Shown here: positions 131 to 42,474 of the stretch, one piece after another
How the letters are laid out: the number at the start of each line of letters is the position of its first letter
Numbering within the stretch: the first letter of the stretch is position 1
DNA from: an uncultured Bacteroidales bacterium
GTDB taxonomy: Bacteria; Bacteroidota; Bacteroidia; Bacteroidales; Paludibacteraceae
DNA: 45,181 nucleotides
Direction of reading: 5' to 3'
NCBI GenBank assembly: GCA_902774185.1
Contig: CACYHE010000013.1
Coordinates: 1-45,181 of the forward strand
Notes under the pieces: model-generated
What the model was told of the DNA's origin: nothing
Database searches by the model: none
The model's input: the letters and a program-made list of their open reading frames with translations, nothing else
Position numbers and translations under genes: made by a program

Positions 131-167
131 TGATGCAAATGATGCAAATGATGCAAATGATGAAATG
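131..167. repeat. Tandem repeat tract, unit GATGCAAAT
   Basis: Three perfect 9-nt units (GATGCAAAT) and a decayed fourth begin one base after the stop codon of the partial gene. This is one of the few tracts in the window whose period is not 7. Confidence 0.85.
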
Positions 168-186
168 GTGAATGTTTAACGAAGGA

Positions 187-214
187 AAAATCGTCCAATT
201 CGGGCGATTTTTCT
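187..214 (+). terminator. Intrinsic terminator after the partial gene
   Basis: A 10-bp stem, AAAATCGTCC (187-196) with GGGCGATTTT (202-211), has a 5-nt loop and a T-rich tail. It ends the gene at the left edge. Nearly the same hairpin recurs at 1082-1102, on the other side of the next gene. Confidence 0.8.
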
Positions 215-230
215 GTCTTTATGCTTTTTT

Positions 231-253
231 CTTTCGACTTTTTTCTTTCGACT
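231..253. repeat. Repeat tract CTTTCGACT, two copies
   Basis: Two copies of CTTTCGACT lie six bases apart, just upstream of the promoter at 254-285. Related CTTTCGACTTTT motifs occur at 15246-15298 and inside the HD gene at 32312-32373. Confidence 0.6.
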
Positions 254-1103: not shown

Positions 1104-1932
1104 TTCTTATTTGTACCAGATGATGGGAGTAATCTCCTTTCTCGATGTTAAAAATGCCGGTTTCATCGAGCTTTTCCACTTTCACCCGACCCGAACAATG
1201 AACGATTCGCGTGGGGTCAATGACGATGCCGACGTGGGTGATGGGGATTGGTGATTGGTCATTGGTGATAGGTGATTTAGAGAAGAACGCCAAGTCACCT
1301 GCCTGCGCTTCGCTTAAGGACACTACCGGCGTACCTTGGGTCGCTTGTTCGGACGCGTTACGAAACAGTTGCCTGCCGAAGAGACTGAGGATGACTTGCG
1401 TGAAACCGGAACAGTCCATACCGAGGGCATTCTTACCGCCCCATAGATAAGGGGTGTTCAGGAAGAAACGAACCGTCTGTAGCAGATTTTGCTCGTTCAA
1501 ATCGAGCGTTTTGGTGATCACCATGCCCGGATCAATGCGAAAGCCGACGCCTAACACTTCGAATCGAGCAGTGCTCGCTTCATTGGTGATGGGTGATTGG
1601 TAATTGGTGATTTTTGTTCCTGCTGTCAAGGGTATCGTCTGTCCGTTATTCTCACTCACGGCATAGGCAACCGGAAAAGCAACCATAGCGGCGGTCTTCA
1701 ATGCGTCCTTATAAGCCTCATATTCCTCCGTTTTCATCGGACAAATCATCTTCGTATCCACCCATCCTTCTTGACCGTCATTCTCCAATCGGACATGCGT
1801 CCAATTGGTGATTGGTGATTGGTGATTGGTGATTTGACACAACTCCCCGAAGAGCATCTGCGTGTTTTGCTCTGCTCCTTCCCTTGCTTCCGCCCTCACC
1901 GGCACGATACTATGTAATGAAATACCTTTCAC
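1090..1932 (-). CDS. SH3 / NlpC-P60 family cell-wall peptidase with three repeat inserts
   Basis: A 280-residue cysteine peptidase of the NlpC/P60 (C40) family, which cleaves gamma-D-Glu-diamino-acid bonds in peptidoglycan peptides. An SH3-like part (about 8-60) precedes the catalytic domain. Catalytic candidates are Cys174 in GMDCSGF, His233 in THVGIV and His245. No signal peptide is seen, as in cytoplasmic murein-peptide recycling enzymes of this group. The start is GTG at 1930-1932 and lies inside a repeat tract. Three tracts of the ACCAATC unit interrupt the protein in frame at residues 33-43, 107-117 and 218-231 (peptide ITNHQSPITN and variants). The last lies just before His233. It is the final gene of a comF-nadB operon. 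Whether the enzyme is still active with these inserts cannot be judged here. Confidence 0.85.
   Translation of the reverse strand: MKGISLHSIVPVRAEAREGAEQNTQMLFGELCQITNHQSPITNWTHVRLENDGQEGWVDTKMICPMKTEEYEAYKDALKTAAMVAFPVAYAVSENNGQTIPLTAGTKITNYQSPITNEASTARFEVLGVGFRIDPGMVITKTLDLNEQNLLQTVRFFLNTPYLWGGKNALGMDCSGFTQVILSLFGRQLFRNASEQATQGTPVVSLSEAQAGDLAFFSKSPITNDQSPIPITHVGIVIDPTRIVHCSGRVKVEKLDETGIFNIEKGDYSHHLVQIRRIAR
1240..1279. repeat. Heptanucleotide tract in the NlpC/P60 gene, unit GATTGGT
   Basis: Degenerate GATTGGT units (ACCAATC on the coding strand) encode residues 218-231 of the peptidase (SPITNDQSPIPIT). The tract keeps the reading frame. Confidence 0.85.
1582..1613. repeat. Heptanucleotide tract in the NlpC/P60 gene, unit GATTGGT
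   Basis: Four to five degenerate GATTGGT units encode residues 107-117 (KITNYQSPITN). They sit between the SH3-like part and the catalytic domain. Confidence 0.85.
1803..1835. repeat. Heptanucleotide tract in the NlpC/P60 gene, unit GATTGGT
   Basis: The least decayed copy in this gene, with four perfect GATTGGT units. It encodes residues 33-43 (QITNHQSPITN) inside the SH3-like region, where family members have a short loop. Confidence 0.9.
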
Positions 1933-1963
1933 CTTTCAACTTTCACCTTTCAACTTTCACCTT
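1926..1963. repeat. Heptanucleotide tract at the nadB / NlpC-P60 junction
   Basis: On the transcribed strand the tract alternates AGGTGAA and AGTTGAA, making a 14-nt higher-order unit. It fills the 29-bp gap between the two genes and contains the GTG start codon of the NlpC/P60 gene. A tract with almost the same alternation lies at 9420-9449. Confidence 0.9.
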
Positions 1964-5009: not shown

Positions 5010-5441
5010 ATGTCAGAGACCAAATACGAGAGTAAAATCAGTTCGGCGCCCTGTTCGGCGCAGCAGATCTACCGCGTGCTGAGTAACATGCAGAACCTGG
5101 AGCGCGTGAAAGATCAGATTCCGAAAGACAAGGTGCAGGAGATGTATATCGAGCCGGACCGTGTACGGTTGAAAGTGGACGGTTTGGCGCAATTGATCAC
5201 CATCGCCATCGTGGATCGTATCGAGAATGATACGGTCAAGTTCGGCTTGGAAGGTATCCCGATGGACGGTAACTTCTGGATTCAGCTCAAAGAGGTAGCG
5301 CCGAACGATACACGTATCAAGTTGACGGTGAAAGCGGACATCCCGATGATGTTCCGTTTGATGATCGGTAAGAAGTTGCAGGACGGATTGGACCAGGCAG
5401 CAGATATGCTCGCGCAATTCCCGTACGCACAATGGGCGTAG
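5010..5441 (+). CDS. SRPBCC (START/Bet v1-like) family protein
   Basis: A 143-residue protein starting MSETKYESKI; the longer frame would begin within the promoter. It has the SRPBCC pattern: an early beta-strand, the helix pair (SAQQIYRVLSNMQNLERVK), a run of antiparallel strands, and a long C-terminal helix (KKLQDGLDQAADMLAQFP). Such proteins form a hydrophobic pocket for lipids or other small hydrophobic ligands. The ligand is unknown. The next gene makes phosphatidylethanolamine, which would fit a lipid ligand, but that is only inference from position. First gene of the operon. Confidence 0.8.
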   Translation: MSETKYESKISSAPCSAQQIYRVLSNMQNLERVKDQIPKDKVQEMYIEPDRVRLKVDGLAQLITIAIVDRIENDTVKFGLEGIPMDGNFWIQLKEVAPNDTRIKLTVKADIPMMFRLMIGKKLQDGLDQAADMLAQFPYAQWA

Positions 5442-5446
5442 TTTTA

Positions 5447-5483
5447 GATGGTTTGAGATGGTTTGACGGTTTGAAAGTTTGAT
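5447..5483. repeat. Tandem tract before psd, unit GATGGTTTGA
   Basis: Two perfect 10-nt units (GATGGTTTGA) and two decayed GGTTTGA units fill the 43-bp gap between the SRPBCC gene and psd, ending at the psd start region. The reverse complement family recurs in the nfnAB coding region at 8408-8460. Confidence 0.85.
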
Positions 5484-5484: not shown

Positions 5485-6165
5485 ATGAAAAGACCAAGAA
5501 TACACAGAGAAGGACGGCACATGATCATAGGAATCGTGTTGCTGTTGTTTATTATCAATGTGCCGGTATATCTGTATGTACAGACGCATTGGATTTTTGC
5601 AGTATCGCTGATGTTAACGGCTTTGCTGTTAGTGTTTGTCACTTATTTCTTCCGTAACCCTATCCGGGTGTTGGAGATCGATGATCCGAATTTCATCATC
5701 GCGCCAGCAGACGGACGTGTGGTGGTGATTGAACCGACGGAAGAGAATGAGTATTTCCATGAGAAGAAACTGCAGGTGTCCATCTTCATGTCGCCGTTCA
5801 ACGTGCATGCCAACTGGTACCCGATCGAGGGAACGGTGTTGGTGAGCGAGCATCAGAAGGGTAGCCATAAAGGAGCGTGGCTTCCTAAGTCCAGTACGGA
5901 GAACGAGCGTTCGTTAGTGGTGATAGAGACACCGTCGAAAGTGCGCATAGCCGTTCGTCAGATCGCTGGAGCCATGGCTCGTCGTATCGTGACCTACGCC
6001 AAACCCGGTCATTTTGCGCACCGTAATACCCACCTTGGTTTCATCAAGTTGGGCTCGCGTGTGGATATGTACCTGCCGTTGGATACGGAGATGTTCGTAG
6101 AGGTAGGCGAACATGTGCGTGGCAATGAGACGATCATTGCACGGCTGACAGATAAAGAGAATTGA
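5485..6165 (+). CDS. psd: Phosphatidylserine decarboxylase proenzyme
   Basis: A 226-residue short-type phosphatidylserine decarboxylase, the membrane enzyme that makes phosphatidylethanolamine. Two hydrophobic N-terminal segments (about 12-55) anchor it. The motif GRVVVIEPTEE and the FMSPFNVHANWYPIEG segment are typical. The self-cleavage site is the Gly-Ser of LGFIKLGSRVD (around residue 190), where Ser becomes the pyruvoyl group of the alpha chain. The start is ATG 5485; the frame could also open at TTG 5479 inside the repeat. The stop codon lies inside the following repeat tract. A phosphatidylserine synthase gene is not seen nearby. Confidence 0.93.
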   Translation: MKRPRIHREGRHMIIGIVLLLFIINVPVYLYVQTHWIFAVSLMLTALLLVFVTYFFRNPIRVLEIDDPNFIIAPADGRVVVIEPTEENEYFHEKKLQVSIFMSPFNVHANWYPIEGTVLVSEHQKGSHKGAWLPKSSTENERSLVVIETPSKVRIAVRQIAGAMARRIVTYAKPGHFAHRNTHLGFIKLGSRVDMYLPLDTEMFVEVGEHVRGNETIIARLTDKEN

Positions 6166-6187
6166 AAATTGAAAATTGAAAATTGAT
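6160..6187. repeat. Heptanucleotide tract at the psd / deoC junction, unit AATTGAA
   Basis: Four near-perfect AATTGAA units. The psd stop codon (6163-6165) is part of the first unit and the tract ends six bases before the deoC ATG. Confidence 0.9.
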
Positions 6188-6193
6188 AATACT

Positions 6194-7072: not shown

Positions 7073-7125
7073 ATGGCTAAATGGTCAAATAAATGACCAA
7101 ATGGTAAATGAATAAATGGTAAATG
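7071..7125. repeat. Heptanucleotide tract at the deoC / nfnAB junction, unit AAATGGT
   Basis: Degenerate AAATGGT/AAATGAAT units fill the whole 50-bp gap and run through the ATG of nfnAB: the segment GGTAAATGAATAA is present twice, so the start-codon context is itself a repeat copy. A related AAATGGT tract occurs inside aroB at 23374-23408. Confidence 0.9.
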
Positions 7126-9420
7126 AATAAGATTTTATCCAAAAGATTTTTCTCGGATAATGTAGCGGAGCTTGTAGTAGAAGCTCCGCTTATTGCCCGT
7201 AGTCGTCGTGCCGGTCATTTTGTGATTATCCGTGTGGACGCTGTGTCCGAACGTGTGCCGTTGACTATCGCCGGAGCGGATATCGAAAAAGGCACCATCA
7301 CCTTGGTCGTGCAACAGATAGGCGCATCGACGCATAAACTGTTGGCGATGGAACCGGGTGAATGTCTGCATGATATCGTTGGTCCGTTGGGGCGTGCTAC
7401 GCGCATCGAGAACTACGGAACGGTCGTTTGTGCCTGCGGTGGTGTCGGTGCTGCACCCATGCTCCCGATCGCTGAGGCCCTTAAGAAAGCCGGAAACAAA
7501 GTGATCACCGTACTCGCTGCCCGTAACAAAGACCTGCTTATCCTGCAAGATGAGTTGGCACAATGGTCGGACGAGGTCATCATCATGACCGATGACGGTT
7601 CGGCGGGACAGCAAGGCGTGGTTACCGTAGGAGTCGAACAAGTCATCCAACGTGAGATCGTCAACAAATGTATCACCATCGGTCCGGCGATTATGATGAA
7701 GTTCGTCGCTTTGACAACCGCTAAGTATAACATCCCGACCGAAGCATCGCTTAACACCATCATGGTCGATGGAACCGGTATGTGCGGTGCGTGCCGTGTG
7801 ACAGTGCATGGGAAGACGAAGTTCGTCTGCGTCGATGGTCCTGAGTTCGATGCCCATGGCGTTGATTGGAACGAGATGCTCAGCCGAATGAAAGCCTTCA
7901 AGGCGGAAGAAACCGAAGCGCTGGAGAAATATAAGAATGGTGCTAGTTCGTCTAGTATGACTAGTCCGACTAGTTCGACTAGTTCGGTCTCCATCAGCGC
8001 CGTAGAACCCTATGAGGGCAAACCGAAGGATAGAGTGGCCATCCCCCGTGTGCAGATGCCGGAACTGCGTCCCGAAGTGCGTGTGAAGAGTCTGCACGAA
8101 GAGGTGAACCAAGGTCTGACGTTCGAACAGGCTATCACCGAATCCCATCGTTGTCTCAACTGTAAGAACCCCACCTGCGTGCAGGGTTGTCCGGTGAATA
8201 TCAACATCCCGGGTTTCATCAAGACCCTGGAGACGGGCGACGTGCTCGGAGCAGCATCTGTCATCAAAGAGAGTTCATCGTTACCTGCTGTGTGCGGTCG
8301 TGTCTGCCCGCAAGAGAAACAATGCGAGAGCCAATGTATCCATCTCAAGATGGGTCATCCGGCCGTCGCTATCGGTTACCTCGAGCGTTTCTGCGCCGAT
8401 TATGCGAACAATCTCAAACAACCTCAAACGATTTCAAACAACCTCAAACAACCTCAAACCAAAATAGCCGTGGTCGGTTCCGGTCCTGCAGGTTTGACAT
8501 TTGCCGGAGATGCCGCCAAATACGGTTACGAAGTGCATGTGTTCGAAGCGCTGCATGAGATAGGCGGTGTGCTCAAATACGGCATCCCGGAGTTCCGTCT
8601 GCCGAATGCGATTGTAGATATCGAGATAGACGGTCTGCGTGACCTCGGCGTACAATTCCATACGGACACCATCATTGGTAAGACAATCTCGATTCAAGAA
8701 CTCGAAGAACAAGGTTTCAAAGGAATATTTGTGGGTTCGGGAGCCGGTCTACCGCGTTTCATGAACATCCCGGGCGAGAACCTCAATGGTGTCATGTCGT
8801 GCAACGAGTACCTGACGCGTGTGAACCTGATGGACGCTTCCAACCCGGCTACTGATACACCGATTCTCTATGGTAAGAACGTAGCGGTCATCGGTGGTGG
8901 AAACACAGCGATGGACGCTGTACGTACCGCCAAACGTCTTGGTGCTGAGCATGCGATGATCATCTATCGCCGTTCGGAAGACGAGATGCCGGCACGTGTG
9001 GAAGAGGTGCATCATGCCAAACAGGAAGGTATCGAGTTCATGACGCTGCATAACCCCATCGAGTATCATGCCGATGAGAGCGGACGTGTCTGCGAAGCCG
9101 TCCTCCAAGTCATGGAACTGGGCGAACCCGATGAGTCGGGTCGTCGTAGTCCGGTGCCTGTAGAAGGCAAGACCGTCACGATACCCGTTGACCTCGTCAT
9201 CGTAGCGGTAGGTGTTAGTCCGAATCCCTTGATCCCTTCGACCGTTGAAGGTCTCGAGATCAGTCGCAAAGGAACTATCGTAGTGAACGAAGGTATGCAG
9301 TCTGCCCTCCCGATGATCTTCGCCGGTGGCGATATCGTTCGTGGCGGTGCAACGGTTATCCTCGCTATGTCTGACGGCCGTAAGGCCGCCAAAGCAATGC
9401 ACGAGTATCTGTCCAAGTGA
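7123..9420 (+). CDS. Fused NADH-dependent ferredoxin:NADP+ oxidoreductase (NfnA-NfnB type)
   Basis: A 765-residue fusion. Residues 1-270 match the FAD/NAD-binding subunit of the dihydroorotate dehydrogenase electron-transfer and NfnA group, with CACGGVGAAPM and a [2Fe-2S] cysteine set around MCGACRVTVHGKTKFVC. Residues 300-765 match the NADPH-dependent glutamate synthase small subunit and NfnB, with iron-sulfur cysteines (CLNCKNPTCVQGCPV, CGRVCPQEKQCESQC) and two dinucleotide folds (GSGPAGLTFAG, VIGGGNTAMDA). Such proteins exchange electrons between NADH, NADPH and ferredoxin; the fused form is known in Bacteroidales. Bifurcation is inferred from the family. Two repeat tracts form the linkers at residues 274-289 (Ser/Thr-rich) and 429-446 (NNLKQPQT repeats). 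No glutamate synthase large subunit is adjacent. Confidence 0.9.
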   Translation: MNKILSKRFFSDNVAELVVEAPLIARSRRAGHFVIIRVDAVSERVPLTIAGADIEKGTITLVVQQIGASTHKLLAMEPGECLHDIVGPLGRATRIENYGTVVCACGGVGAAPMLPIAEALKKAGNKVITVLAARNKDLLILQDELAQWSDEVIIMTDDGSAGQQGVVTVGVEQVIQREIVNKCITIGPAIMMKFVALTTAKYNIPTEASLNTIMVDGTGMCGACRVTVHGKTKFVCVDGPEFDAHGVDWNEMLSRMKAFKAEETEALEKYKNGASSSSMTSPTSSTSSVSISAVEPYEGKPKDRVAIPRVQMPELRPEVRVKSLHEEVNQGLTFEQAITESHRCLNCKNPTCVQGCPVNINIPGFIKTLETGDVLGAASVIKESSSLPAVCGRVCPQEKQCESQCIHLKMGHPAVAIGYLERFCADYANNLKQPQTISNNLKQPQTKIAVVGSGPAGLTFAGDAAKYGYEVHVFEALHEIGGVLKYGIPEFRLPNAIVDIEIDGLRDLGVQFHTDTIIGKTISIQELEEQGFKGIFVGSGAGLPRFMNIPGENLNGVMSCNEYLTRVNLMDASNPATDTPILYGKNVAVIGGGNTAMDAVRTAKRLGAEHAMIIYRRSEDEMPARVEEVHHAKQEGIEFMTLHNPIEYHADESGRVCEAVLQVMELGEPDESGRRSPVPVEGKTVTIPVDLVIVAVGVSPNPLIPSTVEGLEISRKGTIVVNEGMQSALPMIFAGGDIVRGGATVILAMSDGRKAAKAMHEYLSK
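7942..7987. repeat. Tandem tract in nfnAB, unit GACTAGTTC
   Basis: Five degenerate 9-nt units (GACTAGTTC) encode a Ser/Thr-rich linker (residues 274-289) between the NfnA-like and NfnB-like halves of the fusion. Confidence 0.9.
8408..8460. repeat. Tandem tract in nfnAB, unit AACCTCAAAC
   Basis: Five 10-nt units encode NNLKQPQT-type repeats (residues 429-446), directly before the first FAD fold (KIAVVGSGPAG) of the NfnB half. On the other strand the unit is GTTTGAGGTT, related to the tract at 5447-5483. Confidence 0.9.
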
Positions 9421-9449
9421 AAATTGAAAGGTGAAAATTGAAAGGTGAA
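9420..9449. repeat. Heptanucleotide tract at the nfnAB / dacB junction
   Basis: Perfect alternation AATTGAA/AGGTGAA, twice. It fills the 24-bp gap and contains the GTG start codon of dacB. The AGGTGAA unit offers an AAAGG stretch and a GTG in one. Confidence 0.92.
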
Positions 9450-10827
9450 GATTTTCGCAGCGATATTACTGAGTGTTAATTTCCTGACGTCCCATCCGAT
9501 CACCGGACAGGCGAATATGTCCGTCTATATACAGGACTTGAAGACGGGTGAAGTGATTGACAGTTATCGGGAAGAGCATGTGGTTCCTCCGGCATCGGTG
9601 ATGAAGTTATTGACGACCGGTGCGGCTTTGGAGATGTTAGGAGCCGACTATCGTTTTCCTACCGTGCTGGAGTATTCGGGTTCCATTCAGGATGGTGTCT
9701 TGCATGGTAACCTGTATATACGCGGTGGTTGTGACCCTTCTTTGGGTTGGCAAGGTAAGACTGCTTTCCTTACCCAATGGGTCAAAGAAGTGAAGAAAGC
9801 CGGTATCCGTCGCATCGATGGTGCAGTCGTAGCAGACATGACAATGTTGGACGGCGAAGCGCAGAACCCTAACTGGTTATGCGAAGACGCAGGTAACTAC
9901 TACGCACCGGGTATCTTTTCGCTCAACTACTACGGTAACACGATGAATATCGTGCTCAAGAGCGGCGAACCCGGTTCGGTAGCGACGGTAGTGAAGACCG
10001 AACCCAATGTGGAGGATATCCGGTTCATCAACCGTATCCGTTGTGACCGGATCCAGTATGACGGGGCTTTTGTGAGCGGTTTACCGTATAGCAATGAGCG
10101 TTATCTGACCGGGGCAGTGCCCTCTAACTTAGGTACGTTCGGTGTCAAAGGCGACTTACCGAATCCGGGTTTGTTGCTGGCACGTCATTTCACCAATCGC
10201 TTACGTGAGGCGGGTGTGCCGGTAGCGAAAGAAGCAACGTACGAACCCGATTACTTTCCATTGACCCTGCATCGCACGGAACTGTATGTCCATCACTCAG
10301 CGCCCTTATCGGAACTTATCCAAGAGACTAACGTGAATAGTAATAACCTGTACGCCGAGTCGATGTTCCGTTACATCGGAACGCGGTATTCGTTACCGGG
10401 CACTATTCATAACAGTCAGGAGATATTACGGGACTACTGGCGTCGCAGAGGGGTGCAGGTACAGAATGCCATCATCAAAGACGGTTGCGGTCTGGCTCCG
10501 CAAGATGCCATAAGTGCTAAAGCTTTGGTACAACTGTTGACCATTATGGCGCAGAGTAAGTACGCAGACGCTTGGATGGCTTCCTTACCGGTAAGTGGAA
10601 AGACAGGCACCTTGACAACGCTCTGTCCCGGTACAGCCTTGGAAGGACGGATTCATGCCAAGAGCGGTACGATCGCCGGAACGAAGAACTTCGCCGGATA
10701 CATCGACCTGCCCAACGGAGACACGTGGGTGTTCGCTATCCTGATTAACTCCGCACCGGGCAAAGCGAAGAATATTCAATCGGTCATTCAAAAATACCTG
10801 TTGGATGTATATAGCACGCACCCATAG
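9445..10827 (+). CDS. dacB: D-alanyl-D-alanine carboxypeptidase / endopeptidase (PBP4 type)
   Basis: A 460-residue penicillin-binding protein of the S13 family that trims or cuts peptidoglycan peptides in the periplasm. A signal peptide (KIFAAILLSVNFLTS) precedes the catalytic SxxK motif SVMK (residues 51-54). The SxN motif is SNN (about 297-299) and the KTG motif lies in SGKTGTLT (about 385). Length and motif spacing fit PBP4, with the family's large insert between the first two motifs. The start codon is GTG at 9445 and lies inside the repeat tract; there is no better ATG. It overlaps birA by 23 bp. Confidence 0.92.
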   Translation: MKIFAAILLSVNFLTSHPITGQANMSVYIQDLKTGEVIDSYREEHVVPPASVMKLLTTGAALEMLGADYRFPTVLEYSGSIQDGVLHGNLYIRGGCDPSLGWQGKTAFLTQWVKEVKKAGIRRIDGAVVADMTMLDGEAQNPNWLCEDAGNYYAPGIFSLNYYGNTMNIVLKSGEPGSVATVVKTEPNVEDIRFINRIRCDRIQYDGAFVSGLPYSNERYLTGAVPSNLGTFGVKGDLPNPGLLLARHFTNRLREAGVPVAKEATYEPDYFPLTLHRTELYVHHSAPLSELIQETNVNSNNLYAESMFRYIGTRYSLPGTIHNSQEILRDYWRRRGVQVQNAIIKDGCGLAPQDAISAKALVQLLTIMAQSKYADAWMASLPVSGKTGTLTTLCPGTALEGRIHAKSGTIAGTKNFAGYIDLPNGDTWVFAILINSAPGKAKNIQSVIQKYLLDVYSTHP

Positions 10828-11515
10828 TACCAACTCCTTGATGAAGGAGCTAATAGCTAAGGGCCAAGAGCCAAGGTTCATCTACGCCGGTTACCAATCG
10901 GCCGGTCGGGGACAAACCGGTAACAGTTGGGAGAGTGAGGAGGGTAAGAACCTATTGTGTACCATCTTGTTACCACCGGACAAGAACCTGTATTTCCTGA
11001 ATATCGCCGTTAGCGTAGCTGTGTACAGAGTAATTCAGTCTTTTGTCTTTGAGCGAAGTGGTCTTTGTTCTTTGAGCGAAGCGGTCTCAATCAAATGGCC
11101 AAATGATATCTATTACGGAGATAAAAAAGTAGCAGGTATATTGGTGGAAAATGCGATTATAGGCTCAGAGGTGAAGTACTCAATTGCGGGTGTAGGCTTG
11201 AACGTGAACCAGACGGAGTTTCGCTCCGATGCACCGAATCCGATATCGCTCAAACAGATCACGGGAAGAGACTATAACATAGACGAATTGATGGAGCGCT
11301 TGTACGAAGAAGTGCAGCGTGTGCTTAAGGAAGACGTGTGGTCGGAATATAAAGCACATCTATACAGAAAAGAGGGATTTTGGTCGTTCGAAGATAAAAA
11401 CGGATGCTTCGAAGCGCGTATCGAAGATGTCCTGCCTATGGGCGAAATCGTGTTATGCGACAAAGACGGTCAAAGCCGTACATATGGATTTAAACAAATA
11501 AGATATATTTTATGA
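10805..11515 (+). CDS. birA: Biotin--[acetyl-CoA-carboxylase] ligase
   Basis: A 236-residue biotin protein ligase that activates biotin to biotinyl-AMP and attaches it to carboxyl-carrier proteins. Motifs are HSTNS at the start, SAGRGQTGNSW (biotin/ATP loop), SIKWPNDIYYGDKKVAGILVE and GVGLNVNQ. It lacks the N-terminal DNA-binding domain of E. coli BirA, so it should not regulate transcription. Two repeat tracts are built in, at residues 15-24 (LIAKGQEP) and 80-95 (between two strands before the IKWPND motif). The start at 10805 overlaps dacB by 23 bp and the end overlaps rfbB by ATGA, which suggests translational coupling. Confidence 0.92.
   Translation: MYIARTHSTNSLMKELIAKGQEPRFIYAGYQSAGRGQTGNSWESEEGKNLLCTILLPPDKNLYFLNIAVSVAVYRVIQSFVFERSGLCSLSEAVSIKWPNDIYYGDKKVAGILVENAIIGSEVKYSIAGVGLNVNQTEFRSDAPNPISLKQITGRDYNIDELMERLYEEVQRVLKEDVWSEYKAHLYRKEGFWSFEDKNGCFEARIEDVLPMGEIVLCDKDGQSRTYGFKQIRYIL
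10849..10876. repeat. Heptanucleotide tract in birA, unit AGCCAAG/AGCTAAT
   Basis: Four degenerate 7-nt units (AGCTAAT, AGCTAAG, GGCCAAG, AGCCAAG) encode residues 15-24. Same family as the tracts in AsmA, ileS and after DUF5606. Confidence 0.85.
11043..11088. repeat. Direct repeat in birA, about 22 nt
   Basis: Two copies of CTTTGAGCGAAG-YGGTCT separated by a few bases encode residues 80-95. This is one of the few tracts with a long unit. Confidence 0.8.
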
Positions 11516-12645: not shown

Positions 12646-12676
12646 AAATAAGGACACCGGGCGGTGTCCTTATTTT
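12645..12676. terminator. Strong bidirectional terminator
   Basis: A 14-bp perfect stem, AAAATAAGGACACC (12645-12658) with GGTGTCCTTATTTT (12663-12676), and a GGGC loop. A-rich and T-rich flanks serve both the rfbB operon and the convergent AraC gene. Confidence 0.93.
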
Positions 12677-12680
12677 ATTT

Positions 12681-14218: not shown

Positions 14219-14242
14219 TATTTTTGCATTTTTCTTTCTTTT

Positions 14243-35755: not shown

Positions 35756-38700
35756 ATGAAGAAGTTTAACGAGTACAAAAGATTAGATCTGGCGGCGCTG
35801 AGCAAAGAAGTGCTAGCGCAGTGGGAAGCAGAACATTTGTTTGAGAAGAGTGTCTCCACACGGGAGGGACATCCGCAGTTTTTATTCTTTGAAGGACCCC
35901 CTTCGGCGAACGGAATGCCGGGTATCCACCACGTCATGGCACGAACGATCAAAGATACTTTCTGTCGCTTCAAAACCATGCAGGGTTACCAGGTGCGTCG
36001 TAAAGCCGGTTGGGATACCCATGGTCTGCCGGTGGAGTTAGGTGTGGAGAAAATGCTCGGTATCACCAAAGAGGATATCGGTAAAAAGATCTCTGTAGAT
36101 GAATACAACGCGGCTTGTCGTCGGGAGGTAATGAAATATACCAAGGAGTGGACTAACCTCACCAAGCAGATGGGATACTGGGTCGATCTTGATAACCCTT
36201 ATATCACCTATGATAATAAGTATATCGAGACCTTGTGGTACCTGCTCAAAGAGTTATACAAGAAAGGATACCTCTACAAAGGTTATACCATCCAACCCTA
36301 TTCTCCGGCTGCCGGAACGGGTCTGAGTAGTCATGAGTTGAACCAGCCGGGTTGTTACCGCGACGTGAAGGATCTTACCTGTACGGCAAAATTCCATCTC
36401 AAAGATGGTCGCTATATTATCGCTTGGACAACCACACCGTGGACCTTACCATCCAATACGGCTCTTTGTGTTGGACCGAAGATCGACTACGTCGAGATTG
36501 CACTTGAGTCAGGCGAACATATCATTTTGGCTGAGGCTCGTTTGAGTGCATACTTCGAGAACGCAGAAATCGTTGCCCGTTACAAAGGCTCCGACCTTGT
36601 TGGTCTTGAATACGACCCGCTTTTCCCGTGGGTAAACCCCGGACCGGGCGCCTATCGCGTTATCCCCGGTGACTATGTCACCACCGAAGATGGTACCGGT
36701 ATCGTGCATATCGCGCCTACTTTCGGTGCGGATGATAAAAAGGTCGGCGACGCAGCCGGTGTCCCCGGATTGTACATGCAGACCAAGAACTACGGGCCGA
36801 GACCCATGGTGGACTTTACCGGTAAATATTGGAAAATTGAAGACCTCGACCCCGAATGGGTTAAAACAAACGTCAATACCGAACTATACGGCAAGTACGC
36901 AGGACGATTCGTTAAGAATGCTTATGACCCGAACCTCACCGAGAAAGATGAGACGCTTGACTTGCACCTTTGCCTGGAGATGAAAGCAGACGGTCGGTTG
37001 CTCAGAACAGAGAAACACGTCCACTCGTACCCGCATTGCTGGCGTACCGACAAACCGGTTATCTATTATCCGCTCGACTCATGGTTCATCAAATCGACCA
37101 TGGCGCGCGACGAGATGATTGCCCTCAACCAGACCATCAACTGGCAACCCGAATCAACCGGTACAGGCCGTTTCGGACAGTGGCTCAATAACCTCAATGA
37201 CTGGAACCTCTCCCGTTCCCGTTACTGGGGAACACCGTTACCTATCTGGCGTACCGAAGACGGATCGGAAGAGATTTGTGTTGGTTCCATCGCCGAATTA
37301 TTCGATGAAATCGAGAAATCCGTTAAGGCTGGTTTCATGAAAGCCAACCCTTGGCCGAACCATAAAGTAGGGGACTATTCCAAAGCGAACTACGATCCTT
37401 CCGTCATCGATCTGCATCGTCCGTACGTCGATTCCATCGTCCTTGTTTCGCCTTCCGGCAAACCGATGAAGCGTGAATTGGACCTTATCGATGTATGGTT
37501 CGATTCCGGAGCTATGCCTTATGCCCAGAACCACTATCCCTTCGAGAACGCAGACGCACCCCGTACGGCTGACTTCATCTCCGAAGGAGTGGACCAGACA
37601 CGCGGTTGGTTCTTTACCCTGCACGCCATCCACACGATGATCGAAGGTACGGTGGCTTATAAAAACGTCATCTCCAATGGTCTCGTGCTCGATAAAAACG
37701 GCAATAAGATGTCCAAACGTCTGGGTAACGCAGTCGATCCCTTCGGTGCACTCGACACCTATGGCGCAGACCCCGTTCGTTGGTACATGTTGACCAACTC
37801 CTCCCCATGGGAGAATCTTAAGTTCGATCCCGAAGGCGTGGATGAAGTACGCCGTAAATTCTTCGGAACCCTCTACAATACCTACGGATTCTTTGCTCTC
37901 TACGCAAACGTGGATGGTTGGTATAGTACGGCAAATCAGACTAACGAGACAGAATCGAGACAGAATCGAAACGGGTGTAATAGCAGGGTAACAGCAGCTT
38001 ATTCCGAGATTGATAAGTGGATCCTCTCTAAACTCAACTCCCTCGTCAAAGAAGTCACCGAGTCCTACGAAGCCTACGAACCCACTAAAGCAGGTCGTGC
38101 AATAAGTGACTTCGTACAAGACGACCTCTCCAACTGGTATGTCCGTCTCAACCGCAAACGTTTCTGGGGCGGTAGCATGGACGCAGACAAACAAGCGGCG
38201 TACGAGACGCTTTACGCCTGCCTCAAAACCGTCGCACAACTCATGGCGCCCAACGCTCCGTTCTATGCAGATCGTCTCTACCGTGACCTTACCGGCGAGA
38301 CCGTTCATTTGAGCAACTGGCCCAAAGCCGACGAAGCACTCATAGATTCCAAACTCGAGCGGCAGATGTATCTCGCGCAACAAGCGACATCCATGATTCT
38401 CTCGCTCCGTAAGCGAGCAGAGAAAAACGTGCGCCAACCGCTGCAGAAAGCCGTTATTCCGACGCCGGATAAAGAAACAACGGATGCGTTGCTTCATGTA
38501 GCCGATCTCATCAAATCGGAAGTGAACGTCAAAGAACTGGTCATTGTGCCGGCAGAACAAAGCGAAATCCGTTTGGTAAAGAAAATCAAACCGCAGTTCA
38601 AAGTGCTGGGTAAGAAAGTAGGTGCGAATATGAAAGAGTTGGCTGCGGCTATCAATGCGATGTCGCAAGAAGATATAGCCAAAATGGAAACTGAAGGTTC

Positions 38701-39097
38701 TTTCAACTTTCAACTTTCAACTTTCAACTGCACGATAGTGCCCGAAGATGTTGAGATTGTCACCGAAGATATGCCGGGATGGCTTGTGGCCAATAACGGT
38801 ATCCTCACCATCGCTTTGGATATCGAACTGACGGACGAACTGATTGAAGAAGGTATCGCACGTGAATTGATCAACCGTATCCAGAACCTCCGTAAGTCTT
38901 CCGGCTTCGAGATCACCGACCGTATCAAGATCGAGATAGAAGACCGTCCGGAGATCCATAATGCAGTGCTCCATTGCGGCGACTATATCGCTTCGCAAGT
39001 ATTGGCTACGAGCCTTGAGCTAACAGCTAACAGCCAACTGCCAACAGCTATAGAAATGGACGGTTATAATGTGAATATTAATATCCAAAAAGCATGA
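35756..39097 (+). CDS. ileS: Isoleucyl-tRNA synthetase, type 2, with GxHH signature
   Basis: An 1113-residue class I synthetase of the long, eukaryote-like type 2. The ATP-binding signature that should read HxGH is GIHH at residues 56-59 (ANGMPGIHHVMART). The KMSKS loop is KMSKRLGNAVDP. The CP1 editing domain (GWDTHGLPVE, WTTTPWTLPSNTAL, DGTGIVHIAPTFG) and the WFDSG and NRIQNLRKSSGFEITD segments are present. Three repeat tracts are in frame: residues 730-740, 981-992 (SFNFQLSTFNC) and 1088-1099 (ELTANSQLPTA), all outside the catalytic core. It overlaps the following lipoprotein gene by 4 bp. Confidence 0.96.
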   Translation: MKKFNEYKRLDLAALSKEVLAQWEAEHLFEKSVSTREGHPQFLFFEGPPSANGMPGIHHVMARTIKDTFCRFKTMQGYQVRRKAGWDTHGLPVELGVEKMLGITKEDIGKKISVDEYNAACRREVMKYTKEWTNLTKQMGYWVDLDNPYITYDNKYIETLWYLLKELYKKGYLYKGYTIQPYSPAAGTGLSSHELNQPGCYRDVKDLTCTAKFHLKDGRYIIAWTTTPWTLPSNTALCVGPKIDYVEIALESGEHIILAEARLSAYFENAEIVARYKGSDLVGLEYDPLFPWVNPGPGAYRVIPGDYVTTEDGTGIVHIAPTFGADDKKVGDAAGVPGLYMQTKNYGPRPMVDFTGKYWKIEDLDPEWVKTNVNTELYGKYAGRFVKNAYDPNLTEKDETLDLHLCLEMKADGRLLRTEKHVHSYPHCWRTDKPVIYYPLDSWFIKSTMARDEMIALNQTINWQPESTGTGRFGQWLNNLNDWNLSRSRYWGTPLPIWRTEDGSEEICVGSIAELFDEIEKSVKAGFMKANPWPNHKVGDYSKANYDPSVIDLHRPYVDSIVLVSPSGKPMKRELDLIDVWFDSGAMPYAQNHYPFENADAPRTADFISEGVDQTRGWFFTLHAIHTMIEGTVAYKNVISNGLVLDKNGNKMSKRLGNAVDPFGALDTYGADPVRWYMLTNSSPWENLKFDPEGVDEVRRKFFGTLYNTYGFFALYANVDGWYSTANQTNETESRQNRNGCNSRVTAAYSEIDKWILSKLNSLVKEVTESYEAYEPTKAGRAISDFVQDDLSNWYVRLNRKRFWGGSMDADKQAAYETLYACLKTVAQLMAPNAPFYADRLYRDLTGETVHLSNWPKADEALIDSKLERQMYLAQQATSMILSLRKRAEKNVRQPLQKAVIPTPDKETTDALLHVADLIKSEVNVKELVIVPAEQSEIRLVKKIKPQFKVLGKKVGANMKELAAAINAMSQEDIAKMETEGSFNFQLSTFNCTIVPEDVEIVTEDMPGWLVANNGILTIALDIELTDELIEEGIARELINRIQNLRKSSGFEITDRIKIEIEDRPEIHNAVLHCGDYIASQVLATSLELTANSQLPTAIEMDGYNVNINIQKA
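37945..37973. repeat. Tandem tract in ileS, unit GAGACAGAATC
   Basis: Two 11-nt units and a partial third encode residues 730-740 (ETESRQNRNG), before the tRNA anticodon-binding domain. Confidence 0.75.
38698..38729. repeat. Heptanucleotide tract in ileS, unit TTTCAAC
   Basis: Four near-perfect TTTCAAC units encode residues 981-992. The unit is the reverse complement of the AGTTGAA family seen at 1926-1963. Confidence 0.92.
39018..39051. repeat. Heptanucleotide tract in ileS, unit AGCTAAC/AGCCAAC
   Basis: Units AGCTAAC, AGCTAAC, AGCCAAC, TGCCAAC, AGCTA encode residues 1088-1099 (ELTANSQLPTA). Confidence 0.9.
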
Positions 39098-39576
39098 GAA
39101 AAATAGTTTATCTGGCGCTTGTGGCCTTCGTGGCTATCGCTTTCAGCAGTTGTCAGAAGAATAACACCAATGAACCGGAGTTATTCAAACTGACTGACCT
39201 GCAAGGATTATGGCAAGAAAATAACACGGAGCATTATGTGCGTTTCACCGAGGAGAAGGCGGACGAAGCGGGGTACTTGCTGGGTCGCGAGTGGGACGAT
39301 TCGGATTGGGAAGATCCGGACATGACCTTTGAGGAATTTCTCATTTGGAACCGCGAGCAATTGGGACATCTGGTGAACGGATGGTTTCAGTATAAGATGG
39401 AAGGATCCGGTAACTTAACGGAGATCCATTTCATGGATAATGGCGGAGCAGAAATCCCTAAGATCTATGTGATATCCAAACTGACGGATACCGACCTTGA
39501 GTATTACGAAAAGGAATATAAGAACATCAAATATCGTTTCTCCAAAGTACTCCCGTTGGATACGTACGCAGAATGA
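39094..39576 (+). CDS. Small lipoprotein
   Basis: A 160-residue lipoprotein with lipobox FSSC (Cys20). The mature part begins with a short linker (QKNNTNEPE) and then LTDLQGLWQENNTEHYVRFTEE, a pattern like lipocalin-like domains of Bacteroidota, followed by strands and an acidic middle segment (DDSDWEDPDMTFEEF). The function is unknown. It overlaps both ileS and the AsmA gene by 4 bp (ATGA), so all three are likely translated together. Confidence 0.82.
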   Translation: MRKIVYLALVAFVAIAFSSCQKNNTNEPELFKLTDLQGLWQENNTEHYVRFTEEKADEAGYLLGREWDDSDWEDPDMTFEEFLIWNREQLGHLVNGWFQYKMEGSGNLTEIHFMDNGGAEIPKIYVISKLTDTDLEYYEKEYKNIKYRFSKVLPLDTYAE

Positions 39577-42443
39577 AAAAAATCTTTAAGATATTCGGTT
39601 GGACCATCTTTAGTTTATTGTTGGTTCTGATTTTGGCAGTCGGCATCGCCTGCTATCTTATCTTCACGCCTGCCCGCTTAACTTCCATCACCCATAAACT
39701 GGCGGATAGTTACATCACGTGTGATTATAAGATAGGTGAAGTAGAGTTGACCTTCTTCTCTACTTTCCCCTATTTCGGTGCGTCCGTCAAGGATGTAGTG
39801 ATCATAAATCCCGTCACCGGTGCGCAGTCAGACACGGTGCTGGCTGTACCGGAGTTGGTAGTGGCTCTCGACCTAATGAACGCTATCAAGGGCGATATTT
39901 ACATCAAGCAATGTCGTCTCAAGGACGCGCAGGCGAATATCTACATCGCTGCCGACGGGTTGACGAACTATAACGTACTGGCCTTGCCGGAGAGCGAAGA
40001 GACACCGGAAGAAGATACACTCTCTAACGAAGGATGGCGACTGAACAGTTTCGGTTGGGACGAGGACCTGATCTTCTCTGCCCGCACCCTAACGTTCGTT
40101 GATGAGAAAGATACGATCAGCGCTTCGCTGCAAAACGCCTCTATCTCTGTCGCGGGACTGGAAAAAGACACCTTAATCGGAGCGTTGTTGGACGTAAAGG
40201 CCGAGCATATATACGCTTCGCTTAAGGGCGAAACCTATGCCAACGATATGCGCATTAAGTTACATATGCCCGCCCTCTTGGCGAACGGCTCGGAACGCGT
40301 TATTATTGATGGCACAGAACTGCAGATCAATGAGTTCGGTCTGACGTTGGACGGCGAAGCAGGTACTCCTTGTTTCCAGTCGGGCGAGTATAACATGGAC
40401 CTCACGCTTCGTACCGGCAAATGGGATATCGAGTCTCTGCTGGCACTCGTACCGGCGCAGTTCACTTCTTCCATCGCAGAATATAACCTGCATGGCGATA
40501 TTGCCTTGGATGTAACCGCCAAAGGAACCTATAGCGACACGCAGATGCCCGATATCACGCTGCATCAAGTCAAAGCGAAGCTCTGGCATTCGCAGGTGGA
40601 GGCACAAGGTACCGTATCAGACCTTGCCTCCGACATGTTGCTCGATATGCAAGTCAAACTGAATGCCGACATCCCGGATTTCAAGCAGTTTATTCCTCAA
40701 GGAATGAAAGTGGAAGGGCGAACTGACGGAACGGCTAATGTGCGCATGCGTATGTCTGACCTTAGTGAGAAACGTCTGCATAAAGGGCTGATTGATGCCA
40801 ACCTGACCCTGACGGATCTATCCTACAAAACCGATAGCATGGTGGCGGACTTACCGAAGACCACTTTGCAGGTGCAGATACCTAACAAACAACCGTCCAA
40901 ACCGGCTGTCAAATGGGCACGTGTGGATATAACCACCGCCTCGCTCTATACCGCTATGGATACGACGATGAAAGCCACGTTAGGAGGAACCTATCTTCGT
41001 GTAGAGACCGGTGATATCTTGCATGATCAGCAGGATTACTTCGTCCACTTGGGTTCCGAATCGCTGAATGGTTTTTATGAAGATATGAAGGCCAGTATGA
41101 CCAATGCGTGGTTCGAAGCATACCTCGTAGGCGGTAAGAAAGTGAGCGCCAAACTGCTCACCGATGCCATGCATGCTTCCATCGGAACGGAGTTAGGTGC
41201 ACAGACCGATGCCTTGGCTATCGAAGCCGCTTCACGCTATAACAGCGAAGGAGAGAATTTCTTCTTACAGTGGAACCCGCGATTGAAGATCAACCTGATG
41301 AACGGAAGGCTCATCATGCCGGAGCGCTTACCGGAGATAGTGAAGATACCTGTCATCGATTTCGTTTACTCCAATCGTGAGATGAATATCGAGAATGCAC
41401 GTGTAGAGTTAGGTCATTCCGATCTGAACCTCAGCGGAAATGTACGCAATATAGGTAAATGGTTCCGTCATGAAGCGATATTGGAAGGCGAACTGAATGT
41501 CGTTTCTGACCACTGCGATGCCAACCAGTTGATGGACTGGTTCAGTGCAGATAAGGGTAGTGAAGAGGAACAAACGGAAACAGCTAACAGCCAAGAGCCA
41601 ACAGCTAATAGCCAACAGCCTACAGGCGAAGCCGATCCCTTCCTCGTACCTACCGATGTCAACTTGGCGCTTAATACCCACATGCGCGAAGTGGAGGTTT
41701 TCAACCAGGTAGCCAAAGACCTGAAGGGAGGATTCTATATCAATAATGGTACACTGATCTTGGATGAAGTCGGTTTTGTATGCAAGGCAGCTAAACTGCA
41801 GTTAACGGCGATGTATCGCACGCCACGTCGTAACCACCTCTATGTGGGCTTGGACTATCATATGGTCGATGTCGATATCGATGAACTGCTGTCCATGATT
41901 CCAAACCTGGAAGAGATGGTTCCGATGCTTAGTTCGTTCAAAGGCGCAGCGGAGTTCCACTTGGCAGCTGAGACCTATCTTAAGAGTAACTACGAACCGA
42001 AGATGAGTACCTTGCGCGGTGCGGCTTCCTTAACCGGAAAAGACTTGGTTGTACTGGACGGAGAGACCTTCGATCAGATCAGCAAACTGCTGCTATTTAA
42101 GAAGAAGACAGAGAACAAGATCGACTCCATCAATGCCGAAATGACCATCTATAAGAATCAGATTGACCTCTACCCGCTTTGTGTGCAGATGGATAACTAC
42201 ATGGTGGCACTCGGCGGACGGCATAATACCAACATGACCTTCGATTATGATATCAACGTTCTCAGTCCGATCTATCTGGGTGTGAATGTCAGCGGTACCA
42301 TGGATGACCTGCAGATCAAACTCGCTAAGTGTAAGTTTGCGCAGGACTTCAAACCGCATTGGTATCAAAAAGCCGATACCCAGTCCCGTGAACTAAGAGA
42401 ACGGATCAAGCAATCGATGGAGAAAAATGTGCGAATCAAATAA
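39573..42443 (+). CDS. AsmA-like envelope protein
   Basis: A 956-residue protein with one N-terminal membrane helix (about 8-35) and a long periplasmic repeated beta-groove body, as in the AsmA/TamB group of lipid-transfer proteins between inner and outer membranes. It has the N-terminal AsmA pattern (YKIGEVELTFFSTFPYFGASVKDVVI, DLMNAIKGDIYIKQC) and an AsmA C-terminal segment (ELSGxx-like FNLSGNV, DLVVLDGETFDQISKLLLFKKK). A repeat tract gives residues 669-685 (NSQEPTANSQQPT), a hydrophilic linker. The role as a lipid carrier is by family inference. Confidence 0.85.
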   Translation: MKKIFKIFGWTIFSLLLVLILAVGIACYLIFTPARLTSITHKLADSYITCDYKIGEVELTFFSTFPYFGASVKDVVIINPVTGAQSDTVLAVPELVVALDLMNAIKGDIYIKQCRLKDAQANIYIAADGLTNYNVLALPESEETPEEDTLSNEGWRLNSFGWDEDLIFSARTLTFVDEKDTISASLQNASISVAGLEKDTLIGALLDVKAEHIYASLKGETYANDMRIKLHMPALLANGSERVIIDGTELQINEFGLTLDGEAGTPCFQSGEYNMDLTLRTGKWDIESLLALVPAQFTSSIAEYNLHGDIALDVTAKGTYSDTQMPDITLHQVKAKLWHSQVEAQGTVSDLASDMLLDMQVKLNADIPDFKQFIPQGMKVEGRTDGTANVRMRMSDLSEKRLHKGLIDANLTLTDLSYKTDSMVADLPKTTLQVQIPNKQPSKPAVKWARVDITTASLYTAMDTTMKATLGGTYLRVETGDILHDQQDYFVHLGSESLNGFYEDMKASMTNAWFEAYLVGGKKVSAKLLTDAMHASIGTELGAQTDALAIEAASRYNSEGENFFLQWNPRLKINLMNGRLIMPERLPEIVKIPVIDFVYSNREMNIENARVELGHSDLNLSGNVRNIGKWFRHEAILEGELNVVSDHCDANQLMDWFSADKGSEEEQTETANSQEPTANSQQPTGEADPFLVPTDVNLALNTHMREVEVFNQVAKDLKGGFYINNGTLILDEVGFVCKAAKLQLTAMYRTPRRNHLYVGLDYHMVDVDIDELLSMIPNLEEMVPMLSSFKGAAEFHLAAETYLKSNYEPKMSTLRGAASLTGKDLVVLDGETFDQISKLLLFKKKTENKIDSINAEMTIYKNQIDLYPLCVQMDNYMVALGGRHNTNMTFDYDINVLSPIYLGVNVSGTMDDLQIKLAKCKFAQDFKPHWYQKADTQSRELRERIKQSMEKNVRIK
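41579..41625. repeat. Heptanucleotide tract in the AsmA gene, unit AGCCAAC/AGCTAAT
   Basis: Six 7-nt units (AGCTAAC, AGCCAAG, AGCCAAC, AGCTAAT, AGCCAAC, AGCC) encode a Ser/Gln/Pro/Thr-rich linker. The opposite strand would encode LLAISCWLLAV-like hydrophobic peptide, as used in the surA signal. Confidence 0.93.
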
Positions 42444-42474
42444 ATCACAAATCATAAATCAAAAATCAAAAATG
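42441..42474. repeat. Heptanucleotide tract at the AsmA / M3 peptidase junction, unit AAATCAN
   Basis: Units AAATCAC, AAATCAT, AAATCAA, AAATCAA and AAATG, where the last unit holds the ATG start codon of the peptidase. Confidence 0.9.

What the first reader, a model, noticed from the sequence alone, without database searches (positions are those of the whole stretch)
131..42474. About 37 degenerate heptanucleotide repeat tracts spread through gene junctions and open reading frames
Short tracts of 25-60 bp occur roughly every 1.2 kb. Most have a 7-nt period (ACCAATC, AATTGAA, AGGTGAA, AGCCAAC, TTAACTC, ACATTCA, ACAGAAC, AAATGGT, AAATCAN, ATAATCG); a few have 9-11 nt. They lie at gene junctions and inside ORFs. 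No ORF containing one is broken. The units differ between loci, so this is not one dispersed element but a process or a family of related sequences. In size they recall the cyanobacterial STRR heptanucleotides, but those are not known to me to sit in coding genes like this. The mechanism (slippage, template switching, or an active enzyme) is unknown.
Basis: partly seen in the sequence, partly recalled or inferred. Interest (0 to 1): 0.87.

Follow-up and report, generated by a model that had tools for sequence, protein, structure and literature searches.

The report
Fast-changing seven-letter DNA repeat tracts
In a group of gut and rumen bacteria the genome is peppered with short runs of seven-letter DNA repeats, in the gaps between genes and inside working genes; the runs are real, differ quickly between sister species, and look like a strong mutational habit of these genomes rather than a mobile element.

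Summary
In detail: a sharp 7-nt period (69 hits at lag 7 against 0.0 in shuffles) and 35 repeat loci at TRF score 40 or more against a shuffle mean of 1.1. A 445-kb sample of the genome has 125 period-7/14/21 tracts. 65 period-7 tracts lie wholly in called genes; codon permutations give 0, synonymous shuffles 0-3. Relatives are rumen/gut Paludibacteraceae records. Heptamer pattern hits range from 0 to 373 per genome within the genus and are patchy across the order. Orthologous sites carry different tracts or none: at 94-97% flank identity 10 of 15 site pairs do not share the tract. Copy number is humped at 4-5 (mode 30-33 nt). Dominant units recur at unlinked loci 5-12 times more often than letter-shuffled units, more within than between genomes. 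MutS is present; no RVT_1 or Y1 transposase was found in this 87%-complete assembly. Best reading: a mutational process (reiterative slippage or template switching, units partly shared genome-wide), filtered by selection, partly spread between species by recombination. Heptamer excess in bacteria is already known; this is an extreme, in-gene, fast-turnover variant. The birth step is inferred, not shown.

The parts
129..162 (.). period-9 tract (AATGATGCA)
224..253 (.). period-14 (2x7) tract CTTTTTTCTTTCGA, intergenic
1242..1276 (.). heptamer tract, unit GTGATTG, inside NlpC/P60 gene 1090-1857(-); encodes KSPITNDQSPIPI
1585..1612 (.). heptamer tract, unit GTGATTG, inside the same NlpC/P60 gene
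1804..1834 (.). perfect heptamer tract (ATTGGTG)4ATT near the N-terminus of the NlpC/P60 gene; the same 31 nt recur at 14875-14905
1926..1963 (.). heptamer tract CTTTCAC/CTTTCAA alternating, at a gene junction
5441..5466 (.). period-10 tract at a junction; much shorter or absent in 6 of 7 relatives
6160..6190 (.). heptamer tract (AATTGAA)4, overlaps the stop of a PS decarboxylase-like gene and precedes the next start; related AATTGAA-type runs in some relatives, other units or no tract in others
7090..7130 (.). period 15 (7+8) tract TAAATGACC/AAATGGT that carries the stop/start region of a gene junction; 5 of 7 relatives have an almost empty junction
7952..7986 (.). period-9 tract in a variable linker of the ferredoxin reductase/GltD-like protein; several relatives have other repeats there
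8407..8459 (.). period-10 tract in a second variable site of that protein; all 7 relatives differ from the window, 3 of them with clear heptamer runs
9417..9453 (.). heptamer tract GTGAAAATTGAAAG at a gene junction
11038..11087 (.). period-23 tract TCTTTGAGCGAAGCGG; shared with G032 only among 6 relatives compared
12675..12708 (.). heptamer tract TTATTTG at a junction
14506..14535 (.). period 15 (7+8) tract GGATTAGT in a gene-poor stretch
14679..14707 (.). heptamer tract GTTGAAT; also in G015 and G032, other unit in G030
14875..14905 (.). perfect heptamer tract (ATTGGTG)4ATT; no such tract in 4 relatives compared (G015 has another repeat)
23375..23408 (.). degenerate AAATGGT heptamer tract in the C-terminal part of a DHQ synthase-like gene
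28716..28749 (.). heptamer tract (TTAACTC)4TTAACT, intergenic
31232..31260 (.). heptamer tract inside the LpxD-like gene 30452-31447(-), peptide RLSISDYRLA
31941..31972 (.). heptamer tract TCTGTGT inside the HD-domain gene 31460-32770(-)
32344..32373 (.). heptamer tract CTCTCAA inside the HD-domain gene; site shorter by 60 nt in the 2 relatives compared
37945..37969 (.). period-11 tract in a length-variable loop of IleRS (residues about 730-738); several relatives carry CCGACGGTCAA repeats near there
38700..38729 (.). perfect heptamer tract (CTTTCAA)4CT in IleRS, peptide FNFQLSTFN; absent in L009, L012, L013, L015 and others
39018..39045 (.). heptamer tract AGCTAAC/AGCCAAC near the C-terminus of IleRS, peptide LTANSQLPT; other sequence in the relatives aligned
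41579..41625 (.). heptamer tract AACAGCC inside the AsmA-like gene 39573-42443(+), peptide ETANSQEPTANSQQPTG
42442..42479 (.). heptamer tract AAATCAA between the AsmA-like gene and the peptidase M3 gene
35756..39097 (+). isoleucyl-tRNA synthetase gene, used to compare tracts across relatives

Best explanation
The tracts are the footprint of a strong, continuing mutational process in this lineage, not a mobile element and not conserved protein sequence. During DNA synthesis a nascent strand re-copies a stretch of about 7 nt several times (reiterative slippage or template switching) and leaves a run of about 4-5 units. The unit is often borrowed from, or shared with, other tracts in the same genome. 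Selection then filters: tracts are denser outside genes (8.6 against 1.8 per 10 kb); inside genes the sense unit is mostly stop-free, the sites compared are length-variable, and the length changes seen are multiples of 21 nt. Tracts decay by point mutation and some are swapped between related species by homologous recombination. Shown here: reality, turnover, filter, decay, a 21-nt contraction, one recombinant-looking swap, unit sharing. Inferred: the slippage/template-switch birth step and the copying of units between sites.
For: 7-nt excess survives codon and synonymous shuffles. Turnover: of site pairs with 94-97% flank identity 5 of 15 keep the tract and 10 do not share it; at 90-94%, 5 of 29 keep it, 8 have another repeat, 16 none (pairs share species and are not independent; the 21-nt contraction of G104 falls under 'no tract'). 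Unit sharing after removing tracts with similar flanks: coincidence 0.0244, 0.0755, 0.0351 in three genomes against letter-shuffle means 0.0021, 0.0111, 0.0070; within-genome above between-genome, 0 of 2000 permutations. Background seeds do not explain the main own unit: GTGATTG-type seeds 20.8, 16.0, 15.2 per Mb in G000, G015, G035, while that unit dominates 9 of 84 deduplicated tracts in G000 and is not among the eight commonest in the other two. Eight site pairs differing by a multiple of 7 all differ by 21, 42 or 63 nt. Clean 21-nt contraction in G104; point-mutated 30-nt relic in L028. Linker swap in G104 with flanks closer to L050/L039 alleles than to its sisters. Changed tract sites (60 pairs) have inner flanks 0.83/0.81 identical against 0.95/0.92 at kept sites (16 pairs). 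MutS_V in 99 of 101 genomes, two matches in G000.
Against: Copy number peaks at 4.0-4.99 (191 segments) with fewer at 2.6-3.49 (112); stepwise slippage should give more short arrays, as lag 8 does (paralogues not removed). Tract ends are partly phase-locked (held-out set 14 of 29 start at CTTTCAA), which slippage at random seeds does not predict. For another jackpot unit, AAAGGTG, background seeds do follow the tract numbers (12, 23, 5 seeds; 4, 15, 3 deduplicated tracts in G000, G015, G035), so a local seed bias can explain part of the unit sharing. No exact donor was found for the one swap searched: other matches at 3 mismatches only, and the reversed control also gave one. The recombination case means that part of the turnover is allele exchange and not new birth. 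Random changed control sites also have lower inner identity (0.85/0.88).
Confidence: 0.5

Rival explanations
1. Purely local stepwise slippage: each tract is born from its own sequence by the polymerase slipping one 7-nt unit at a time (polymerase-footprint idea cited in PMC4692102), with no exchange between sites; the recurring units only reflect sequence bias.
For: 7 is the dominant period here and reported as over-represented in bacteria (PMC4692102, passages). Units are C-poor on one strand: 41 of 125 contain both G and C, 51% expected at the same G+C, which disfavours hairpins. Unique units show little shared motif beyond composition (4.09 bits against 3.82, max 4.01). The tract at 7090 can be read as a duplication of the native TAAATGAA stop/start sequence. 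n x 21-nt changes exist. AAAGGTG seeds follow tract numbers across three genomes.
Against: Humped copy number, phase preference of ends, within-genome unit sharing above between-genome. In several sister comparisons the tract-free site holds nothing like the unit.
Confidence: 0.25
2. Selected binding arrays: tracts are kept because a DNA- or RNA-binding protein or the ribosome uses them, as proposed for TAACTGA repeats upstream of start codons.
For: At gene ends the purine-rich strand is the sense strand in 19 of 23 co-directional cases (p=0.003), and in 15 of 21 within 30 nt of the next start; many tracts are five cores at 7-nt spacing.
Against: 69 of 125 tracts are inside genes; 106 different dominant units in 292 tracts; further than 30 nt from the next start the orientation is even (14 C-sense, 12 purine-sense); orthologous genes lose or swap the tract.
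Confidence: 0.12
3. A dedicated enzyme or minimal mobile element writes a size-limited run (4 units plus 2-6 nt) in one step with a genome-specific unit, for example by copying a 9-12-nt template over and over.
For: Lengths cluster at 30-33 nt (107 of 292 deduplicated); perfect tracts measured end at 36 nt (96 tracts) and 35 nt (29 held-out); ends are phase-preferring; genome-specific units; load 0 to 373 within one genus.
Against: RVT_1 is absent in G000 and in 13 of 16 genomes, present in 2 of 8 high-load and 1 of 8 low-load; Y1_Tnp absent in G000, present in 2 of 8 high and 3 of 8 low. Other enzyme families were not searched. Lengths are spread from 19 to 68 nt and ends are not strictly fixed. 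Order relatives have long arrays such as GAATACA x16.
Confidence: 0.1
4. Assembly artefact of metagenome short reads.
For: The named relatives are nearly all metagenome assemblies; tracts near contig ends 7 of 98 termini against 3.6 expected.
Against: Identical tracts in pairs from separately named assembly projects, such as L010/L011 and L027/L030; reading frames stay open; tracts are shorter than usual reads (general knowledge).
Confidence: 0.02

Closest known systems
Heptameric simple sequence repeats over-represented in bacteria (2007 survey cited as ref. 33 in PMC4692102, passages read; GGGAATC in Xanthomonas, GGGGA(C/T)T in Nostoc)
   Same: 7-nt units, many loci, degenerate arrays, length and sequence differences between close species, no known enzyme
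   Different: Here 106 dominant units in 292 tracts, none GGGAATC- or GGGGATT-dominated; over half of tracts inside called genes; measured perfect arrays not above 36 nt
TAACTGA direct repeats of Beggiatoaceae, cyanobacteria and five Bacteroidetes including Paludibacter (MacGregor 2015, PMC4679880)
   Same: Heptamers, short arrays, at gene junctions, some in ORFs, differences in 7-nt steps between close strains
   Different: There one unit, mostly just upstream of start codons; here TAACTGA dominates 1 of 292 tracts, 7 more are one change away
Cyanobacterial STRR heptanucleotides (recalled, not read)
   Same: Heptamer arrays dispersed through a genome
   Different: Few fixed units (recalled); CAACAGT dominates 0 of 292 here, 14 are one change away
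Contingency-locus SSRs (for example Haemophilus; search listing and recall only)
   Same: Tandem repeats in and before genes
   Different: No plus or minus 7 variants at kept sites with flank identity 90% or more; tracts sit in housekeeping genes such as IleRS
Rickettsia palindromic elements (recalled; search listing only)
   Same: Short repeats tolerated inside protein-coding genes
   Different: Here tandem heptamers of about 31 nt with many units, no single sequence family

Membership tests
Over-represented bacterial heptameric SSRs | Clear excess of period 7 over neighbouring periods | tested here: met
   98 period-7 tracts against 1 of period 6, 13 of 8, 12 of 9 in 445 kb
Over-represented bacterial heptameric SSRs | Mostly intergenic (as for the Xanthomonas and Nostoc cases) | tested here: not met
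   69 of 125 internal to called genes; density still 8.6 against 1.8 per 10 kb outside versus inside
TAACTGA repeats (MacGregor) | Unit TAACTGA | tested here: not met
   Dominant in 1 of 292
TAACTGA repeats (MacGregor) | One orientation just upstream of start codons | tested here: inconclusive
   Purine strand sense in 19 of 23 at gene ends, but 12 of 26 beyond 30 nt of the next start
Phase-variation (contingency) SSRs | Unit-number change that switches the reading frame between close strains | tested here: not met
   At flank identity 90% or more, 13 kept at the same length, 2 kept with another change, 0 classed as n x 7; the 21-nt contraction in G104 was scored there as 'no tract'. No same-species strains were available
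Mobile element with a linked enzyme | Reverse transcriptase or Y1 transposase in the tract-bearing genome | tested here: not met
   0 RVT_1 and 0 Y1_Tnp in G000, 87% complete
Mobile element with a linked enzyme | Insertion with target-site duplication at empty sites | tested here: inconclusive
   Few clean empty sites; G101:55429 gains 37 nt beside AAA, uninformative
Mismatch-repair-deficient repeat expansion | Loss of MutS | tested here: not met
   MutS_V in 99 of 101 genus genomes, two matches in G000; MutL not searched
Rickettsia palindromic elements | One palindromic sequence family | not tested
   Feature recalled; no palindrome test made

The most novel reading that the evidence does not exclude
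These genomes carry an unrecognised DNA-writing activity that, in a single event, makes a size-limited run of about 31 nt (five short cores at 7-nt spacing) with preferred ends and a genome-specific unit, and places or exchanges such runs across the chromosome, including inside essential genes, so fast that most site pairs no longer share the tract at 3-6% flank divergence.
Probability: 0.12. Interest if true: 0.9.

Novelty: new variant of a known kind. Interest (0 to 1): 0.56.

Why it matters
Why bacteria favour 7-nt repeats is an open question. A genus in which pattern hits run from 0 to hundreds per genome, with sister species 93-96% identical that differ in tracts at the same sites, is a natural experiment for it. 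It also means that parts of linkers, signal peptides and gene junctions here are recent mutational filler, so peptides such as QSPITNH, FNFQLST or KSEEVRV repeats in predicted proteins should not be read as domains.

Tried and rejected
Strict slippage-free model: dropped when site pairs such as L063, L065 and L070 against L081 showed differences of 21, 42 and 63 nt and G104 a clean 21-nt contraction. 'Exact 30-33-nt quantum': softened, because the raw histogram is inflated by the same IleRS tract in many relatives; after flank deduplication the mode stays (107 of 292) but the edge at 30 is weak. One common motif (YAAYNNN, by eye): weak; unique units score 4.09 bits against 3.82 for letter shuffles. 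De novo birth of the G104 linker tract: re-read as allele import, since its flanks resemble L050 and L039. Exact donor for that tract: none at 0-2 mismatches in 4 genomes other than the tract itself. Mini-hairpin GCGAAGC: not special (GAA loop 80, AAA 100, AAT 91). Loss of MutS, RVT_1, Y1_Tnp as causes. Contig-end artefact. Literature searches; apart from MacGregor 2015 no paper on heptamers in Bacteroidales appeared, in an open-licence library only.

Rows dropped before counts: tracts too close to a stretch end for flanks; 166 of 458 tracts by flank similarity; tracts under 21 nt in the phase test (278 of 292 used); 1 of 30 held-out loci as a duplicate. Two tracts with three successive hits (G064:C1, G006:C8) are at least 35 nt and were not measured.
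Full report
What was checked. The window is contig 13 of a 2.19-Mb draft genome, G000, 87% complete. IleRS relatives at 72-92% protein identity are records named Paludibacteraceae or Bacteroidales, many from rumen and gut metagenomes (best 80 kept). TRF, an exact-match period spectrum and a scoring detector of mine all show the reported repeats. 49 TRF loci at score 30, 26 of them of period 7, 14 or 21, stand against 7.1 and 0.9 in shuffles; 35 loci at score 40 stand against 1.1. One of the 28 strict loci, 12364-12387, is ordinary conserved coding sequence.

It is genome-wide. In 400 kb of other stretches of G000 there are 107 tracts of period 7, 14 or 21 and none of any period in one dinucleotide shuffle. 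With the window that is 125 in 445 kb. Periods 8, 9, 11 and 15 are also present but far fewer. With a home-made codon-usage gene caller, 69 tracts are inside genes, 31 between genes and 25 overlap a gene end. Density is 8.6 per 10 kb outside (ends included) and 1.8 inside. The coding ones are not a codon effect: 65 wholly coding period-7 tracts, 0 in six codon permutations, 0-3 in six synonymous shuffles. They encode seven-residue repeats such as QSPITNH, FNFQLST and KSEEVRV in different proteins. Of 80 IleRS neighbourhoods in relatives, 68 hold at least one such tract and 12 none.

It turns over fast. In seven congeners at 78-81% DNA identity over a 4-kb stretch the orthologous junctions and linkers often hold other repeats or none. 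At window 8407 all seven differ from the window. The junction at 7090 is nearly empty in five of seven. Some tracts are shared: 6160 in part with G015, G030 and G080, 14679 with G015 and G032, 11038 with G032. Between sister species the picture is similar: in the G101-G104 clade (93-96% identical) the IleRS loop is CTTTCGA x4 in G101 and G102 and CAACTAT x4 in G103 and G104. What reads as a signal peptide in G103 holds CTTTCAA x4 where its sisters have other sequence. Counting site pairs: at 97% flank identity or more, 5 of 7 kept; at 94-97%, 5 of 15 kept and 10 not shared; at 90-94%, 5 of 29 kept, 8 with a different repeat and 16 with none (pairs share species, so these are not independent events).

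How tracts change. Kept tracts mostly keep their length at 90% identity or more (13 of 15). Eight site pairs classed as differing by a multiple of 7 all differ by 21, 42 or 63 nt, and G104 shows a clean 21-nt contraction within the close clade. Frame selection hides 7-nt changes in genes, so the slippage rate there cannot be read off. L028 shows the IleRS tract decayed by point mutation at unchanged length. One swap, the G104 linker, carries flanks more like those of L050 and L039 than of its sisters, which points to homologous import. In line with this, changed tract sites (60 pairs, 34 sites) have inner flanks 0.83 and 0.81 identical against outer flanks of 93%, while kept sites (16 pairs) have 0.95 and 0.92. 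That comparison is ungapped, so small indels inflate the difference; random changed control sites give 0.85 and 0.88.

Three features that plain slippage does not predict. First, copy number is humped: segments at lag 7 number 58 at 2.6-2.99 copies, 54 at 3.0-3.49, 70 at 3.5-3.99, 107 at 4.0-4.49, 84 at 4.5-4.99 and 38 at 5.0-5.99, whereas lag 8 falls steadily, 36, 27, 22, 13, 6, 2. The modal tract is 30-33 nt (107 of 292 after flank deduplication, range 19-68), and no perfect period-7 tract measured exceeds 36 nt among 96. A ceiling could arise if longer perfect self-homology recombines away, and fast growth to that ceiling would give the hump; that is inference. Second, tract ends prefer certain phases: pooled start-anchored information is 0.39 bits against a rotation maximum of 0.12 (n=278); by set, the start exceeds its maximum in 3 of 4 (not G015) and the end in 4 of 4. 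In a fresh set from other genomes 14 of 29 CTTTCAA tracts start at CTTTCAA (p=1.4e-5 against 1/7). Third, units recur at unlinked loci and do so in a genome-specific way. The density of single seeds is similar between genomes for the main G000 unit, but for AAAGGTG it follows the tract numbers. These results favour exchange or copying of units between sites, or a genome-specific bias; they do not decide between the two.

Cause. MutS is present. RVT_1 and Y1_Tnp are absent from G000 and do not follow the load in 8 high and 8 low genomes. A degenerate heptamer pattern counted together with its reversed form gives 373 hits in G000, 333 in G015 and 331 in G090, but 0 in G028 and 4 in G011, in one genus (101 genomes; overlapping hits, so hits are not tracts, and GAA-type units are favoured). 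Across 60 genomes of the order the sum runs from 1 to 728 (G154), and some genomes have long arrays. So the trait is widespread in the order and strongly variable.

Function. Near gene starts the purine-rich strand tends to be sense (19 of 23 at gene ends, 15 of 21 within 30 nt of the next start), as expected if a C-poor leader is tolerated or favoured. Inside genes the sense strand of the dominant unit is stop-free in 53 of 69. Both can be read as filters on a mutational supply. A regulatory role at some junctions is not excluded.

Known and new. Heptamer over-abundance in bacteria, and the idea that the polymerase contact length explains it, are in print (PMC4692102, passages read, citing a 2007 survey I did not read). 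TAACTGA heptamers in Beggiatoaceae, cyanobacteria and Bacteroidetes, some in ORFs, are in print (PMC4679880; abstract and two sections read). What I did not find in print (searches, open-licence library) is this combination: high load of many different units in a Bacteroidales genus, over half inside genes, a 30-33-nt mode, genome-specific units and fast turnover between sister species.

Noticed in passing
L027 12232-12285 and IleRS equivalents in L010, L011, L030: A period-11 repeat CCGACGGTCAA with more than 50 listed similar places (about 35-70 nt, 80-98% identity) in 8 genomes searched; it differs by 11 nt between sisters.
   Followed up: partly
window 7090-7130; L034 16066; G101:55429; G101:63062: A recurring 15-nt unit AAATGACCAAATGGT at gene junctions that seems to supply stop and start codons and may separate overlapping genes.
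   Followed up: partly
window 11038-11087; G091 at window 8407; G032 and G087 at window 9417; G101:63657: A 16- to 23-nt repeat family resembling GCGAAGCGGTCTGTCAGC, also seen in what reads as a signal peptide of G101.
   Followed up: no
window 13940-15298: A 1.36-kb stretch with tRNA-Glu (14038-14110) and several tracts but no called gene; ORF 14243-15244 has no Pfam match.
   Followed up: no
window 12364-12387: A 12-nt repeat ATCATCAAGACC in an epimerase gene that is conserved in all 7 relatives compared; ordinary protein sequence.
   Followed up: yes
order-level genomes G154, G155, G147: Other Bacteroidales families carry heavy heptamer loads, some with long arrays (GAATACA about 16 copies in G155), unlike the short arrays of this genus.
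   Followed up: no
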